From assembly GCA_012838035.1 (NCBI GenBank), contig DUQB01000081.1, positions 1-56,001 of the forward strand: a stretch of 56,001 nt of DNA, read 5' to 3'. The position numbers and the translations under genes were made by a program. This stretch comes from Bacillota bacterium (GTDB taxonomy: Bacteria > Bacillota > Limnochordia > DTU080). This document shows, one piece after another, positions 44,825 to 55,636 of the stretch (positions are counted from its first letter, which is position 1; every line of letters starts with the position of its first letter). The notes beneath the pieces were generated by a model. That model saw only the letters and a list, made by a program, of their open reading frames with translations. It searched no databases and was not told the DNA's origin.

Positions 44825-45655
44825 ATGGATCTTTGGTTTACTGAAAAACAGACAAATACTCTCGGCCTGTCACTTAAGGTGCTGCGCACGTTGGTAACCG
44901 AGCATACGCAGTTTCAGGACTTGGCCGTGCTGGAAACCGAGCAGTATGGACGTATGTTGGTGTTGGACGGTATAATTCAGACGACCACGGCGGATGAGTT
45001 CGTCTACCACGAGATGATCACCCATGTTGCCCTGTTCACTCATAAGGATCCGAAAACCGTAGCAATCATCGGCGGTGGTGACGGCGGAGCCGTACGTGAA
45101 GTCGTTAAGCATCCCGGCGTAGAGCGGGTCGTTTTGGTGGAGATCGATGAGCGCGTGGTGGCGGCATCTCGGCAGTATTTACCGGAAATCGCCGCAGGGT
45201 TGAGCGATGAGCGGGTAGAAGTTCGATTCGAGGACGGCATACGTCACATCAGGGAGAACAAAGGCGTCTACGATGTCGTTATTGTCGATTCAACCGACCC
45301 GATCGGCGCAGCCGTCGGTTTGTTCTCGGCCGAATTTTATGCCGACATTTACGAAAGCCTGAAGGATGACGGCATCATGGTAGCGCAAACCGAATCGCCG
45401 TTCCATAATCAAGATTTGATTCGCAAGAGCTTTTCGGCCATACGCGATCTATTCCCGATCACGCGCCTTTATTTAGCCTATGTCCCTACATATCCCAGCG
45501 GCATGTGGAGCTTCACGATCGCGTCAAAAGAAAACGATCCGTTGTCGGTTCCTATGGATAGGTTCATCAACATTCCTACCAAGTACTATACGCCGCAGAT
45601 ACATTTCGCCGCCTTTACGCTGCCGCAACTTGTAGGTCAGATGCTGCAGGGATGA
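44825..45655 (+). CDS. speE: Spermidine synthase (polyamine aminopropyltransferase)
   Basis: Transfers aminopropyl from decarboxylated SAM to putrescine. Motifs: LWFTEKQTNTLGLSLKV at the start, LETEQYGRMLVLDGIIQTTTADEFVYHEMITHV, the SAM-like loop VAIIGGGDGGAVREVVKHPGVERVVLVEIDERVV, and DVVIVDSTDPIGAAVGLFSAEFY with the catalytic Asp. 276 residues is normal. GGAGGAG eight bases before ATG. Co-directional with speB. A GGTGGG/CCCACC hairpin without T tract lies just after the stop (45661-45677). Confidence 0.96.
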   Translation: MDLWFTEKQTNTLGLSLKVLRTLVTEHTQFQDLAVLETEQYGRMLVLDGIIQTTTADEFVYHEMITHVALFTHKDPKTVAIIGGGDGGAVREVVKHPGVERVVLVEIDERVVAASRQYLPEIAAGLSDERVEVRFEDGIRHIRENKGVYDVVIVDSTDPIGAAVGLFSAEFYADIYESLKDDGIMVAQTESPFHNQDLIRKSFSAIRDLFPITRLYLAYVPTYPSGMWSFTIASKENDPLSVPMDRFINIPTKYYTPQIHFAAFTLPQLVGQMLQG

Positions 45656-45746
45656 TTATTGGTGGGCTCATCCCACCTATCTCTGCAATAAGCGCCGGAA
45701 GTAAAGGATCGGCGGAAGCCCGATCATAAAAGGAGATGTGCGAAGC

Positions 45747-46628
45747 ATGGACATGGAGCGGACCTTCATCGATCCGGTGTTCCATCAGGATGGCAGATAC
45801 TTGGGCAGCTTGGCATCGCCGCAGGAAGCCAAGGCGGTAATGTTGGGCGCTCCTTTGGACGGTACCGTGAGTTACTGGCCGGGCGCTCGCTTTGGTCCGG
45901 CTCGAATTCGCAGCGCATCGAACGCCTTGGAAGAGTACAGCCCCATGCTTGATCGCAGCTTAGCGGAAACAGCGTTCTACGACGCCGGCGACGTCGATAT
46001 TCCGTTGGGGAACGTAGCGGGCGCACTGCGGGCCATAAGCGAAGCGACGCACGATCATGCAGTAAGCAAAGGCAAGATGCCCATCGTGTTAGGTGGTGAA
46101 CACCTCATCTCCTTGCCGGTAATTGAGGCCGTGCATGCCGTGTACCCCGATTTGGTCGTTCTACAATTTGATGCCCATACCGATCTGCGAGAAACCTATC
46201 TGGGGGAGACGCATTCTCATGCTACGGTGATCAAACGTGTCTGCGACATTGTGGGTCCTCAGAACGTCTATCAGTTCGGCATTCGCTCCGGAACCCGCGA
46301 GGAGTTTATTTATGGCCGCGAGCACACGCGTTTTTACCCGTTTGAGGTCTTGGCACCGGTGAGGAGCGTTTTACCGGAATTGCACGGGCGACCCATTTAC
46401 ATTACAGTAGACATAGATGTTATAGATCCGGGTTTTGCGCCAGGCACAGGTACTCCTGAACCAGGCGGATGTACGCCGCACGATTTGCTGGCCGCTTTGC
46501 ACTCCCTAAACCAACAGCAGGTAGTAGGTTTTGATTTAGTCGAGCTGTGTCCCCTAGCGGAATCCGGCGTGGTTACATCAGTCTTGGCAGCCAAAATCGT
46601 ACGAGAAGCCATCCTTAGTTTCGTTTAA
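45747..46628 (+). CDS. speB: Agmatinase/ureohydrolase
   Basis: Hydrolyses agmatine to putrescine and urea, supplying speE. Manganese ligands lie in VLGGEHLISLP, LQFDAHTDLRETYLGE and VDIDVIDPGFAPGTGTPEPGG; the family signature is complete. ATG 45747 is preferred (AAGGAG eleven bases upstream) over the track's GTG at 45738, which is too close to that site. 293 residues. The speE-speB pair is a standard Bacillota arrangement. Confidence 0.93.
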   Translation: MDMERTFIDPVFHQDGRYLGSLASPQEAKAVMLGAPLDGTVSYWPGARFGPARIRSASNALEEYSPMLDRSLAETAFYDAGDVDIPLGNVAGALRAISEATHDHAVSKGKMPIVLGGEHLISLPVIEAVHAVYPDLVVLQFDAHTDLRETYLGETHSHATVIKRVCDIVGPQNVYQFGIRSGTREEFIYGREHTRFYPFEVLAPVRSVLPELHGRPIYITVDIDVIDPGFAPGTGTPEPGGCTPHDLLAALHSLNQQQVVGFDLVELCPLAESGVVTSVLAAKIVREAILSFV

Positions 46629-51667: not shown

Positions 51668-52648
51668 ATGTGGTCTATTGGCGATATACAAATGAAGTAT
51701 CCTGTGGTGTTGGCTCCAATGGCCGGAGTTACCGATCTGCCCTTTCGCTTGATCGTGAAGGAGTTCGGCTGCGCTTTGGTCTTCGGCCAGTTGGTAAGCG
51801 CTAATGCCATACGATATGGGAACAAGAAAACCGATGTACTGTTACAGATTGCGGAACAGGAGCGTCCGGTAGGGTTGCAGCTATTCGGCTCCGATCCTGC
51901 GGCGATGGCTGCGGCGGCTCGCTATGTGGCGGATTTCCATCCCGATATCATCGATGTGAACTTAGGGTGTCCGGCGCCAAAGGTCGTAGATAACGGTGAC
52001 GGATGCGCGCTGATGCGAGACCCGGTCAAAGCGGCAGAAGTAGTCCGAGCTGTTGTAAAAGCCGTAGATATTCCCGTAACGGTCAAAATCCGCAAGGGGT
52101 GGGATGATCAAAGCGTTACGGCAGTGGAGATCGCCCAGCGTGTGGAGCAGGTAGGCGTCTGCGCCGTTACGATTCACGGCCGAACGCGGCAACAGTTTTA
52201 CGGCGGCAACGCCGACTGGGACATTATAGCCGCAGTACGAGAAGCCGTGAGTATTCCGGTCATCGGCAACGGCGACGTTCGCACGCCTGAGGATGTGACG
52301 GCGATGATGCGACGGACCGGTTGCACGGCCGTTATGGTCGGTCGCGCCGCTTTGGGCAATCCATGGCTGTTTCGTCGGATCGTGCAGTATCTTGAACATG
52401 GCGTCTATGACGCCGACCCCACGGATACGGAAAAAGTAGCCATGGCCATTCGTCATCTGCGGATGGCGTTGGAGATGAAGGGCGATCATGCGGTATATGA
52501 GATGCGTAAGCATCTGGCTTGGTATCTGAAGGGAGTGCCGAACGCAAATAAGGTGAAGCAGGTCATCATGAGTATTGACGCTGCAGACGCGGTTTTTCAG
52601 GTGTTATATGAGCTGTTGGAACAGTTGGCGACTGTGGAAGAAGCATAA
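51668..52648 (+). CDS. dusB: tRNA-dihydrouridine synthase (DusB type)
   Basis: FMN-dependent reduction of uridines in tRNA. Motifs: VVLAPMAGVTDLPFRLIVKEFG, GLQLFGSDPAAMAAAARYV, IDVNLGCPAPKVVDNGDGCALMRDP with the catalytic Cys of GCPAPK, ITIHGRTRQQFYGGNADWDII-like TIHGRTRQQFYGGNADWD, and VIGNGDVRTPEDVTAMMRRTGCTAVMVGRAALGNPWLF. 326 residues. ATG 51668 has GAGG about twelve bases upstream. Confidence 0.94.
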   Translation: MWSIGDIQMKYPVVLAPMAGVTDLPFRLIVKEFGCALVFGQLVSANAIRYGNKKTDVLLQIAEQERPVGLQLFGSDPAAMAAAARYVADFHPDIIDVNLGCPAPKVVDNGDGCALMRDPVKAAEVVRAVVKAVDIPVTVKIRKGWDDQSVTAVEIAQRVEQVGVCAVTIHGRTRQQFYGGNADWDIIAAVREAVSIPVIGNGDVRTPEDVTAMMRRTGCTAVMVGRAALGNPWLFRRIVQYLEHGVYDADPTDTEKVAMAIRHLRMALEMKGDHAVYEMRKHLAWYLKGVPNANKVKQVIMSIDAADAVFQVLYELLEQLATVEEA

Positions 52649-52796: not shown

Positions 52797-52825
52797 TTGC
52801 TGATGTTGGGGGGACCTGTTACAAT
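52797..52825 (+). promoter_or_regulatory. Promoter of the HTH / unknown / AAR-like operon
   Basis: TTGCTG (52797-52802), 17-base spacer, TACAAT (52820-52825). The start point should fall near 52832, inside the tandem palindromes. Confidence 0.65.
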
Positions 52826-52826
52826 A

Positions 52827-52851
52827 AGTTGTGCACAGAGTTGTGCACAAC
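52827..52851 (+). promoter_or_regulatory. Tandem palindromic operator TTGTGCACA x2
   Basis: AGTTGTGCACA occurs twice, at 52827-52837 and 52839-52849, with a 12-base period; the second forms a perfect GTTGTGCACAAC palindrome. The sites begin one base after the -10 box, the position expected for a repressor that blocks initiation. The likely ligand is the helix-turn-helix protein encoded 34 bases downstream (inference). Confidence 0.7.
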
Positions 52852-52884
52852 CCGGTCGCCGGCGTTATATAGGAGGGATAAAAG

Positions 52885-53427
52885 ATGGATCTGCTGCGTA
52901 TCGGCGATAAACTGATCAGTCGTAGCAAGATCGCACGTTTCATCGATGCCATCCTTCAGTTGCGCATTCAGGGCGCATCGCAACAGGAAGTCGCGAATGA
53001 GTTGCGTGTCGACCGTGCGTTCGTATCGCGGTTGGAAACCTTGGGAGAGGTGCGCAAGGGCGGTCGCATAGCCATCGTAGGTTTTCCTATCGGGAACAGA
53101 GACGAGATTCTGCAAGTCGCCCAGGAGGAAGGCGTTGATTACTGCCTGATACTGACGGATAAAGAACGTTGGGATTGGCCGAATCGCCTGAGCGGCGCCG
53201 AGGTGGTGAACCAATTGTTCGATCTCATCTCGGAGATTAAGGAGTACGATAATGTCATTTTTATCGGCTCAGATAAGCGGATTCGGTTGGTGGAGACCAT
53301 TTTGGGGCGAGACATGGTTGTAGCCGTTCAGATTGGCACATCTCCCATTAAAGCGGACGTAACGCTTGATCCTGACTACATGCGGGAAGTGATACACCGT
53401 CTGAAGACCGAGTCCGAGTCGGTATGA
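52885..53427 (+). CDS. Helix-turn-helix transcriptional regulator with a small C-terminal domain
   Basis: 180 residues. The N-terminal ~60 contain a helix-turn-helix (IQGASQQEVANELRVDRAFVSRLETLGE). The C-terminal ~115 form an alpha/beta domain (GRIAIVGFPIGNRDEILQVAQEEGVDYCLILTDKERWDW, VIFIGSDKRIRLVETILGRDMVVAVQIG) that I do not recognise but which could bind a ligand. AGGAGGG seven bases before ATG. It is the first gene of the operon and probably binds the tandem palindromes in its own promoter region. Confidence 0.8.
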   Translation: MDLLRIGDKLISRSKIARFIDAILQLRIQGASQQEVANELRVDRAFVSRLETLGEVRKGGRIAIVGFPIGNRDEILQVAQEEGVDYCLILTDKERWDWPNRLSGAEVVNQLFDLISEIKEYDNVIFIGSDKRIRLVETILGRDMVVAVQIGTSPIKADVTLDPDYMREVIHRLKTESESV

Positions 53428-53477: not shown

Positions 53478-54392
53478 CTGAAACACGTAGTGAGCGTAAG
53501 TATCGGTTCATCAAGCCGGAACCATCGGTATGAGGCGGAGATCCTCGGAGAACCTGTTCTCATAGAACGCATCGGCACCGATGGTGACATTGACAAAGCC
53601 ATCAAGCTGATGCAGGAGCTGGACGGCAAGGTGGACGCTTTTGGTATGGGCGGCATCGATATATGGCTGTTTTCCGGCACACGGCGGTACGCATTTCGCG
53701 ATGCCAAGCGCATATTGGCTGCAGTGCGCCATACGCCCATCCTTGACGGCAGCGGCTTAAAGAATTCATTGGAGGCTTGGGTGGTAAACTACATCGATAG
53801 CGACGGTGGTATCCCGCTGAAGGGAAAGCGTGTAATGATGACCGCCTCGGTCGATCGTAACGGCATGACCAAAGCTCTTAACGCTTTAGGTTGCCAAATG
53901 CTCTACGGCGACCTTGGATTCGGCGTAGGACTACCGATCAAAATCCAAAGCCCTAAAGTGATGGATGTCGTGGCCGGCATGCTGTTGCCGTTATTTGTAC
54001 AGCTGCCCTTTAAATGGTTATATCCCACAGGCGAGAAACAACTGGATTCGACCCCGCGCTATGGCGGCTGGTTCGCATGGGCGGACGTCATTGCCGGCGA
54101 TTTCCTGTATATTTGGCGCTATATGCCGGAGCGTCTGGACGGCAAGATCATCATTACCAATACCGTTACGCCGGAAAACGTCAGCGAGCTTAAGAAACGC
54201 GGAGTAGCCTACCTGGTTACCACAACGCCCAACTTGGGCGGCCGCTCGTTCGGTACCAACGTCATTGAGGCCGTGTTAGTGGCTGTTTCCGGTAAGCGAC
54301 CTGAGGAACTGAACGGTGATGATTATCTTAGATTAATGCGCGATGTTGGTTTTACTCCGCGCATTGAGCAGCTAAACGGCAGGACGGCTTAA
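53478..54392 (+). CDS. Conserved protein of unknown function, between the regulator and the AAR-like enzyme
   Basis: About 304 residues. The opening KHVVSVSIGSSSRNHRYEAEILGEPVLIERIGTDGDIDKAIKLMQELDGKVDAFGMGGIDIWLFSGTRRYAFRDA suggests an enzyme core. PLKGKRVMMTASVDRNGMTKALNALGCQMLYGDLGFGVGLPI looks like a Rossmann-type strand-loop-helix. Homologues are, as I recall, sometimes named quinate 5-dehydrogenase, but I see no basis for that activity. CTG 53478 is my preferred start: a run of seven G ends seven bases upstream and it gives the natural KHVVSVSIGS beginning. GTG 53490 is the conservative alternative but has no ribosome binding site at normal distance. Confidence 0.75.
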   Translation: MKHVVSVSIGSSSRNHRYEAEILGEPVLIERIGTDGDIDKAIKLMQELDGKVDAFGMGGIDIWLFSGTRRYAFRDAKRILAAVRHTPILDGSGLKNSLEAWVVNYIDSDGGIPLKGKRVMMTASVDRNGMTKALNALGCQMLYGDLGFGVGLPIKIQSPKVMDVVAGMLLPLFVQLPFKWLYPTGEKQLDSTPRYGGWFAWADVIAGDFLYIWRYMPERLDGKIIITNTVTPENVSELKKRGVAYLVTTTPNLGGRSFGTNVIEAVLVAVSGKRPEELNGDDYLRLMRDVGFTPRIEQLNGRTA

Positions 54393-54499
54393 GACCTACG
54401 GTCGGAAGCATTGTGCGGCGCGAGTTGAGCCGAACACGATGGTGCCTTTCGGCAGGCATGTTGATAAGGAGTACTCACATCCATTCAGGAGGTCCCAGG

Positions 54500-55636
54500 T
54501 TGCAAAAATTCGGATTTATTATCCACCCCATTGATGTAAAGGACGTAGCACGCAAATTTGCGGTGGCCAGTCGCTTTCCCGATCATGTGATTGAGAGAGT
54601 TCTGCCGTTGGTCCCTGCGTTGACTACTTCACATATCACAGGTGTACAGTCGCTTAACGGCGCCAAGGCGGAGGGTTGGTTCGTCAGCGTCCCGCTTACA
54701 CCTAGGCTCATGATGGAGAAACTGCCGGAAGCCAAGGTCATCAAGCGCATCATTTCAGCCGGTCGCAAGGCGGCCGACCAGGGGGCTAAGATCGTCGGTC
54801 TCGGCGCGTTTACGTCTGTGGTCGGCGATGCCGGGATTACGGTGGCGAACAACCTGGATATTGCGGTCACCACCGGTAATACCTTTACGGCCGCTACGGC
54901 GTTGATGGGTATCGAGTACGCGGCGCAGCGGTTGGAGATCGATTTAAGCAGGCAAACTATTGCCGTTCTGGGCGCTTCAGGTTCCATAGGAAAGGCCTGT
55001 GCGCGCATCCTTGCACAAAAGGGCATGCAGGTGACGATTGTGGCCAGAGACCGTAGCCGATTGGAAGAGCTGGCCCGTTTGATTCATGAGGAATCAGGCG
55101 CGGATGTACGCATCGAAACCGATTTGTCTGCTGCCGTGCGTTCTGCAGGCGTAGTCGTCGCCGTCACCAGTGCGATGGAAGCAGTGATCGATGCAGGCGA
55201 TATTCGTCCGGGAGCCATCGTGTGTGATGTAAGCCGTCCTCGCAACGTATCGAAGGCCGTCGCCCAGCAACGGCAGGATGTACTGGTATTTGAGGGCGGC
55301 GTTGTTTCGGTGCCGGGTCAAGTTGATTTCGGCCTGAACTTCGGATTTCCCCCGGGAACCTCCTATGCCTGTATGGCCGAGACAATGATTCTGGCGCTGG
55401 AGGGCAGATATGAGAACTATAGCTTGGGACGGGATTTGGATGTGGCTAAGGTAAGGGAGATTTCGGCGTTGGCCGAGAAGCACGGTTTTAAACTGGCCGG
55501 CTTACGCAGTTTCGAAGCTGCGGTTACCAATGCCGCGTTCGAAAAGGTGAAGGCGCAACTGCATCTGCAGAAACGTAAAACGCCCTTCCTGGAAGAAAGA
55601 CCCGTTGGTACGGCATACGGCGGCAAAACGCCGTAA
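54500..55636 (+). CDS. Homologue of cyanobacterial acyl-ACP reductase (AAR)
   Basis: 378 residues from TTG 54500 (AGGAGG seven bases upstream); the track's 29 extra residues are unsupported. Blocks match AAR of cyanobacteria: QKFGFIIHP at the N-terminus, KIVGLGAFTSVV (AAR: ISALGGFTSII), VTTGNTFTAATA (FTTGNTHTAY), the NADPH loop IAVLGASGSIGKACARIL (~residue 158), GGVVSVPG, and SYACMAETMILALEGRYENYSLGRD with Cys291 (AAR: [25 protein letters not shown], whose Cys carries the acyl thioester). AAR reduces acyl-ACP to fatty aldehyde. A similar reaction here is inferred; the acyl donor may differ. A shikimate-dehydrogenase-type label would reflect only the Rossmann fold. Confidence 0.85.
   Translation: MQKFGFIIHPIDVKDVARKFAVASRFPDHVIERVLPLVPALTTSHITGVQSLNGAKAEGWFVSVPLTPRLMMEKLPEAKVIKRIISAGRKAADQGAKIVGLGAFTSVVGDAGITVANNLDIAVTTGNTFTAATALMGIEYAAQRLEIDLSRQTIAVLGASGSIGKACARILAQKGMQVTIVARDRSRLEELARLIHEESGADVRIETDLSAAVRSAGVVVAVTSAMEAVIDAGDIRPGAIVCDVSRPRNVSKAVAQQRQDVLVFEGGVVSVPGQVDFGLNFGFPPGTSYACMAETMILALEGRYENYSLGRDLDVAKVREISALAEKHGFKLAGLRSFEAAVTNAAFEKVKAQLHLQKRKTPFLEERPVGTAYGGKTP

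What the first reader, a model, noticed from the sequence alone, without database searches (positions are those of the whole stretch)
52820..52851. Tandem TTGTGCACA palindromes immediately after the -10 box
Two copies of AGTTGTGCACA with a 12-base period start one base after TACAAT and cover the expected transcription start. This geometry is typical of autorepression. The period is close to one helical turn, so two dimers could bind side by side.
Basis: partly seen in the sequence, partly recalled or inferred. Interest (0 to 1): 0.6.

Follow-up and report, generated by a model that had tools for sequence, protein, structure and literature searches.

The report
Conserved operator for fatty-aldehyde/amine genes
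Two side-by-side TGTGCACA palindromes on the start of transcription are a real control site, kept across a large group of anaerobic bacteria, where an unstudied 180-residue protein probably shuts off itself and the genes that turn fatty acids into aldehydes and amines.

Summary
It far exceeds chance and is unique in the host genome. The tandem site follows the -10 in 71 of 75 regulator promoters in the class and in 18 of 20 sampled across the phylum. Where it is missing there, it usually sits before the co-regulated metabolic genes. A second conserved target was found: genes for an aminotransferase::acyl-ACP-reductase fusion (TamH/PigE-like); in a gene-first sample 17 of 18 carry the site after their -10. 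Relatives that kept the metabolic genes but lost the regulator lack the site (9 of 10). Changes in one box are never compensated in the other (0 of 72): a DNA operator, not an RNA hairpin. Best explanation: the 180-aa HTH protein is a repressor whose dimers bind adjacent palindromes and block RNA polymerase, controlling itself, an unknown 300-aa protein, the reductase and, in relatives, the transaminase. Binding, sign and ligand are inferred. It is a new regulon of an ordinary kind; no description of the motif turned up in the searched literature.

The parts
52797..52802 (+). weak -35-like hexamer TTGCTG, 17 bp before the -10
   Evidence: sequence; 3 of 6 matches, not called by the consensus scan
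52817..52825 (+). extended -10: TGtTACAAT
   Evidence: sequence; TGn before the -10 in 64 of 71 orthologous promoters
52830..52837 (.). operator box 1, TGTGCACA (the variable box in orthologs: TGWGNACA)
52842..52849 (.). operator box 2, TGTGCACA (near-invariant box; core GTGCA 71 of 71)
52827..52851 (.). whole tandem operator, overlapping the expected transcription start (about 52832)
   Evidence: phylogenetic footprint; absent in regulator-less relatives
52871..52877 (+). ribosome-binding site AGGAGGG
   Evidence: sequence
52885..53427 (+). 180-aa regulator: N-terminal HTH plus C-terminal alpha/beta domain; presumed binder of the operator
   Evidence: ortholog in 70 of 73 class genomes
53490..54392 (+). 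300-aa protein of unknown function (g300), two-domain Rossmann-like model with weak structural similarity to acyl-ACP reductase
   Evidence: no Pfam or NCBIfam hit
54413..55636 (+). acyl-ACP reductase (AAR)-like reductase; true start probably near codon 30
   Evidence: TIGR04058 128 bits, below the equivalog cut-off; 4ppm PigE 140 bits and 6jzq AAR 95 bits, Cys conserved

Best explanation
The element is the operator of a small regulon. The 180-residue HTH protein encoded just downstream binds as a dimer to each TGTGCACA palindrome. Two dimers sit side by side, 11-12 bp apart, from about -4 to +18 around the transcription start of an extended -10 promoter, and block RNA polymerase. This represses the operon regulator - g300 - acyl-ACP-reductase-like gene. 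In related genomes the same site also represses the gene for an aminotransferase fused to, or working with, that reductase, so the regulon likely serves conversion of an acyl thioester to an aldehyde and, where the transaminase is present, to an amine. Release is presumably by a small molecule of that pathway bound by the C-terminal domain. Shown here: the site, its position, its conservation, its second target, and its loss together with the regulator. Inferred: that the 180-aa protein is the binder, that the effect is repression, the dimer stoichiometry, the ligand and the product.
For: (1) Footprint: 71 of 75 distinct promoters (class genomes plus a few named contigs) carry two TGTGCACA-like boxes (at most 3 mismatches of 16) right after the -10, against 0.2% of shuffles. 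(2) 18 of 20 phylum loci, picked before their upstream DNA was seen, have it; so do orthologs only 43% identical (L008-L012). (3) Second target: the aminotransferase::AAR fusion gene. In loci fetched by gene rather than by motif, 17 of 18 testable have the tandem site upstream, and the 18th (G007) has it before the g300 gene that opens its operon. (4) The site tracks the regulator: relatives with g300/AAR/transaminase genes but no regulator lack it in 9 of 10, including loci that read dusB-g300-AAR (L328, L331, L333) (Fisher p = 3.5e-5 against the phylum sample). (5) Position on the start site of a conserved extended -10 promoter (64 of 71) fits occlusion. (6) Seven genomes use period 11 at the regulator promoter and 12 at the second target, so each palindrome is a unit. 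(7) The HTH residues D43, R44, S48, E51 are invariant, matching the conserved core.
Against: No binding or expression data. G106 has a perfect tandem site before its fusion gene but only generic HTH hits and no clear regulator ortholog. In G007, G022 and G048 the regulator promoter has no site, so autorepression is not universal. G018 has the regulator and operator but no AAR or transaminase. In the window's own genome no transaminase gene with the operator was found, so the amine step is not shown here. The AAR score is below the equivalog threshold.
Confidence: 0.82

Rival explanations
1. Another, unlinked transcription factor (for example a GntR-type or global regulator with a TGTnnACA-type site) binds the palindromes, and the 180-aa protein does something else.
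For: TGTNNACA-like palindromes are bound by several families (own knowledge); G106 and G032 have the site without a detected regulator.
Against: Relatives that keep g300/AAR/fusion genes but lack the 180-aa gene have no site in 9 of 10. The site is limited to one or two promoters per genome, both in this pathway. G032 is a draft whose congeners have the regulator.
Confidence: 0.1
2. The element acts as RNA: the two boxes pair into a hairpin in the 5' leader that controls translation or stability.
For: The window's own copies can pair (leader folds with a 6-bp stem).
Against: The fold is not better than shuffles (z = -0.74). Across 71 promoters only 21 pairs of boxes are fully pairable and 0 of 72 box-1 changes are compensated in box 2. 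Part of box 1 lies at or before the expected start.
Confidence: 0.03
3. The 180-aa protein binds the site but activates the operon, or is an architectural factor.
For: The sign of regulation cannot be read from sequence; -35 elements are weak.
Against: The site lies downstream of the -10 over the start, where bound protein normally blocks polymerase; the promoters have near-consensus extended -10 elements.
Confidence: 0.08
4. The repeat is a chance or structural feature, such as a DnaA-box cluster.
For: TTGTGCACA is two changes from TTATCCACA; single boxes are not enriched in the window.
Against: Expected tandem pairs about 0.007 per genome; fixed position across a phylum.
Confidence: 0.01

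Closest known systems
One-component HTH autorepressors with operators over the start site (general class; HTH_3/HTH_31-like hits)
   Same: Short HTH protein upstream of the genes it controls, palindromic operator overlapping the promoter, own operon as first target.
   Different: N-terminal HTH only weakly matches Pfam HTH models; the C-terminal alpha/beta domain has no Pfam family and no confident structural match. Tandem 8-bp palindromes at 11-12 bp, usable in both orientations.
Archaeal Tfx-type regulators (NF003056/PRK03975; PDB 8hno/8hnp 'archaeal transcription regulator'; the Tfx name is from own knowledge)
   Same: Profile match to 8hnp over most of the length (E = 2e-4) and 22 bits to NF003056 in the HTH.
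   Different: NF003056 score is far below its cut-off of 115; the match is mostly the HTH; different domain of life.
TamH (Pseudoalteromonas tunicata) and PigE (Serratia): transaminase/thioester-reductase fusions
   Same: The second target has the TamH domain order (class III aminotransferase then AAR-like reductase). The TamH transaminase domain accepts C7-C14 fatty aldehydes, and TamA plus TamH convert fatty acids to amines (PMC9594044). Best NCBIfam hit is PigE, 538 bits.
   Different: Below PigE's 850-bit cut-off; here it lies in a lineage-wide regulon rather than a pigment gene cluster. In the window only the reductase is present.
FapR and other lipid-gene repressors of Firmicutes
   Same: Repressor tied to acyl metabolism (own knowledge).
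   Different: FapR has a hot-dog malonyl-CoA domain and an AT-rich site of another sequence (own knowledge); neither is seen here.

Membership tests
Autorepressor operator | palindromic site overlapping the promoter or start of the regulator's own gene | tested here: met
   conserved in 71 of 75 orthologs
Autorepressor operator | site co-occurs with the regulator gene and is lost when the regulator is lost | tested here: met
   9 of 10 regulator-less relatives lack it; exception G106
Autorepressor operator | regulator binds the site and lowers transcription | not testable with these tools
   needs EMSA, footprinting and a deletion mutant
Regulatory RNA leader | compensatory base changes between the two arms | tested here: not met
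   0 of 72 changes compensated; z = -0.74
Acyl-ACP reductase (AAR, TIGR04058) | score above the curated cut-off (449.7 bits) | tested here: not met
   128 bits: AAR-like, not a member of the equivalog
Acyl-ACP reductase (AAR, TIGR04058) | catalytic cysteine and Rossmann glycine motif | tested here: met
   Cys320 in YACMAETMILALE conserved in at least 90% of 32 homologs and aligned with the Cys of PigE 4ppm; G187/G190/G193 conserved
TamH-type transaminase::thioester reductase (second target in relatives) | N-terminal class III aminotransferase plus C-terminal AAR-like domain in one chain | tested here: met
   PF00202 335 bits plus Shikimate_DH/AAR-like region
TamH-type transaminase::thioester reductase (second target in relatives) | makes long-chain amines | not testable with these tools
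   biochemistry needed
Tfx-type regulator (NF003056) | score above 115 bits | tested here: not met
   22 bits

The most novel reading that the evidence does not exclude
The 180-aa protein founds a new regulator family, spread through a whole phylum of mostly anaerobic bacteria, that senses an acyl-derived aldehyde, amine or acyl-carrier and controls an undescribed fatty aldehyde/amine pathway made of g300, an AAR-like reductase and a TamH-like transaminase.
Probability: 0.4. Interest if true: 0.68.

Novelty: new member of a known kind. Interest (0 to 1): 0.52.

Why it matters
It gives a precise DNA site and a named candidate regulator for a conserved gene set whose product is unknown. The second target points to acyl-thioester reduction followed by transamination, so it predicts long-chain aldehydes or amines in a large group of anaerobic Bacillota, where such lipids are not commonly reported (own knowledge). 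The site is short and highly conserved, so one binding assay and one deletion would settle the regulon, and the inducer would name the pathway's metabolite.

Tried and rejected
RNA hairpin: rejected by lack of compensation and z-score. DnaA box or global factor: rejected by restriction to one or two promoters and by the regulator-less controls. Single-box genome search: 174 hits per strand against 161 in the reversed control at two mismatches, so single boxes are not informative; the three exact GTTGTGCACA sites elsewhere in the genome (C95, C107, C166) are not tandem, and the C95 one lies inside coding sequence. A conserved-looking hit in G047/G068 lies inside an oxidoreductase-like gene and is coincidence. 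Operator near class III aminotransferases of the window's own family and of f8: none found. Fold search of the regulator: no confident match. g300 against AAR profiles: not significant (E 0.46) although Foldseek finds AAR-type structures (E about 1e-5 to 1e-4, TM about 0.45). Literature searches for the motif and operon: nothing relevant.

Full report
OBSERVATION. The window reads TTGCTG-N17-TACAAT-A-AGTTGTGCACA-G-AGTTGTGCACA-AC at 52797-52851. Two perfect 8-bp palindromes TGTGCACA (52830-52837, 52842-52849) stand 12 bp apart. About 1e-4 such pairs are expected in the window and 0.007 in the 3.72-Mb genome; one exists. Single boxes are not enriched, so the tandem arrangement and its place matter, not the 9-mer. 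The -35 is weak; the promoter is recognisable by its extended -10.

SETTING. The site lies between dusB (51668-52648) and an operon of three genes: a 180-aa HTH protein, a 300-aa protein without a Pfam or NCBIfam family ('g300'), and an acyl-ACP-reductase-like enzyme. The last matches PigE (PDB 4ppm) and cyanobacterial AAR (6jzq) and keeps the cysteine of the ACMAET motif. It scores 128 bits against a cut-off of 449.7 for the AAR equivalog, so it is AAR-like, not a certified AAR.

CONSERVATION IN THE CLASS. The regulator has an ortholog in 70 of 73 genomes of the class, with g300 in 71 of 73. Of 75 distinct upstream sequences (class genomes plus a few named contigs), 71 have two TGTGCACA-like boxes with at most 3 mismatches of 16 (68 have at most 2), against 0.2% of shuffled sequences at 3 and none lower. 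Box 2 is almost invariant; box 1 is TGWGNACA. The gap from the -10 to box 1 is mostly 3-5 bp. The period is 12 (43 cases), 11 (27) or 14 (1). TGn precedes the -10 in 64 of 71.

CONSERVATION IN THE PHYLUM. A profile search of 399 genomes gave two groups, strong orthologs and generic HTH hits near E = 1e-4. From the strong group 20 loci were picked by family before their upstream DNA was seen; 18 carry the tandem site and usually the same gene order, in two cases regulator-AAR without g300 (L289, L303). Orthologs of only 43% identity on named contigs (Dethiobacter and other Bacillota MAGs, L008-L012) have it too.

A SECOND TARGET. Genome-wide tandem scans gave the regulator promoter plus, in many genomes, one other promoter, with reversed-pattern controls near zero. 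That second gene encodes about 880 residues: a class III aminotransferase followed by an AAR-like domain. This is the TamH architecture; TamA and TamH together convert fatty acids to amines (PMC9594044). The nearest NCBIfam model is PigE (538 bits, cut-off 850). To avoid circularity, fusion genes without a prior motif hit were fetched by gene: 17 of 18 testable have the tandem site just upstream, and the 18th has it before g300 at the head of its operon. At this target the perfect box usually comes first and the variant box second, the reverse of the regulator promoter. Three stand-alone transaminases of one family have the site as well.

NATURAL EXPERIMENTS. In G007, G022 and G048 the regulator gene follows dusB without an operator, while the site stands before g300 or the fusion gene. 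The site therefore belongs to the pathway and autorepression is optional. Conversely, ten genomes keep AAR, g300 or fusion genes but have no regulator ortholog and could be tested; nine have no tandem site there, including loci that read dusB-g300-AAR with the regulator absent (L328, L331, L332, L333). Against 18 of 20 regulator-bearing phylum loci this gives p = 3.5e-5 (related genomes are not independent, G076 and G122 being of one genus). The exception, G106, has three boxes before its fusion gene and no clear regulator.

MECHANISM. The site covers about -4 to +18 relative to the expected start, so a bound protein would exclude polymerase. Seven genomes use period 11 at one target and 12 at the other; a single rigid dimer spanning both boxes would not tolerate that easily, whereas two dimers on two palindromes would. 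Changes in box 1 are never compensated in box 2 (0 of 72) and the leader does not fold better than shuffles, so an RNA element is disfavoured. The regulator model (pLDDT 89) shows a beta-hairpin, a three-helix HTH and an alpha/beta domain without a confident relative in the PDB. By inference that domain binds the inducer. g300 folds as a two-domain Rossmann-like protein whose best structural neighbours include AAR-type reductases, but profile comparison with AAR is not significant and no cysteine is invariant; its role is open.

WHAT IS SHOWN AND WHAT IS INFERRED. Shown: the site, its promoter position, conservation, second target, and co-loss with the regulator. Inferred: the binder, repression, two dimers, the ligand, and an acyl-to-aldehyde-to-amine pathway. 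In the window's own genome only the reductase step is seen; no operator-bearing transaminase was found.

VERDICT. A real operator and a new regulon of an ordinary mechanistic kind. No prior description of this motif was found in the literature library, which lacks most subscription papers, so novelty of the regulon is likely but not certain.

Noticed in passing
53490-54392: 300-aa protein family closely linked to the regulator, no Pfam/NCBIfam model, about 49 invariant residues, two-domain Rossmann-like model with weak structural similarity to acyl-ACP reductases.
   Followed up: partly
L165:3079-5727 and about 40 other genomes: TamH-like aminotransferase::AAR fusion genes occur throughout this class of Bacillota and carry the same operator, mostly in reversed orientation.
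   Followed up: yes
L337:3435-3465 (G106): Three boxes (TGTGTACA-TT-TGTGCACA-TACT-TGTGCACA) before a fusion gene in a genome with no clear regulator ortholog.
   Followed up: partly
L275 (G018): Regulator, operator and g300 present but no AAR or transaminase homolog in a 96%-complete genome; suggests g300 has a role of its own.
   Followed up: no
L057 (G050:C114:2503-4356): Tandem duplication of the g300 gene.
   Followed up: no
51668-52648: dusB (nifR3) sits just upstream of the regulator in most genomes of the phylum that were looked at, an unusually stable neighbourhood.
   Followed up: partly
44825-46628: Spermidine synthase-like and agmatinase-like genes side by side earlier in the window (read from the translations only).
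   Followed up: no
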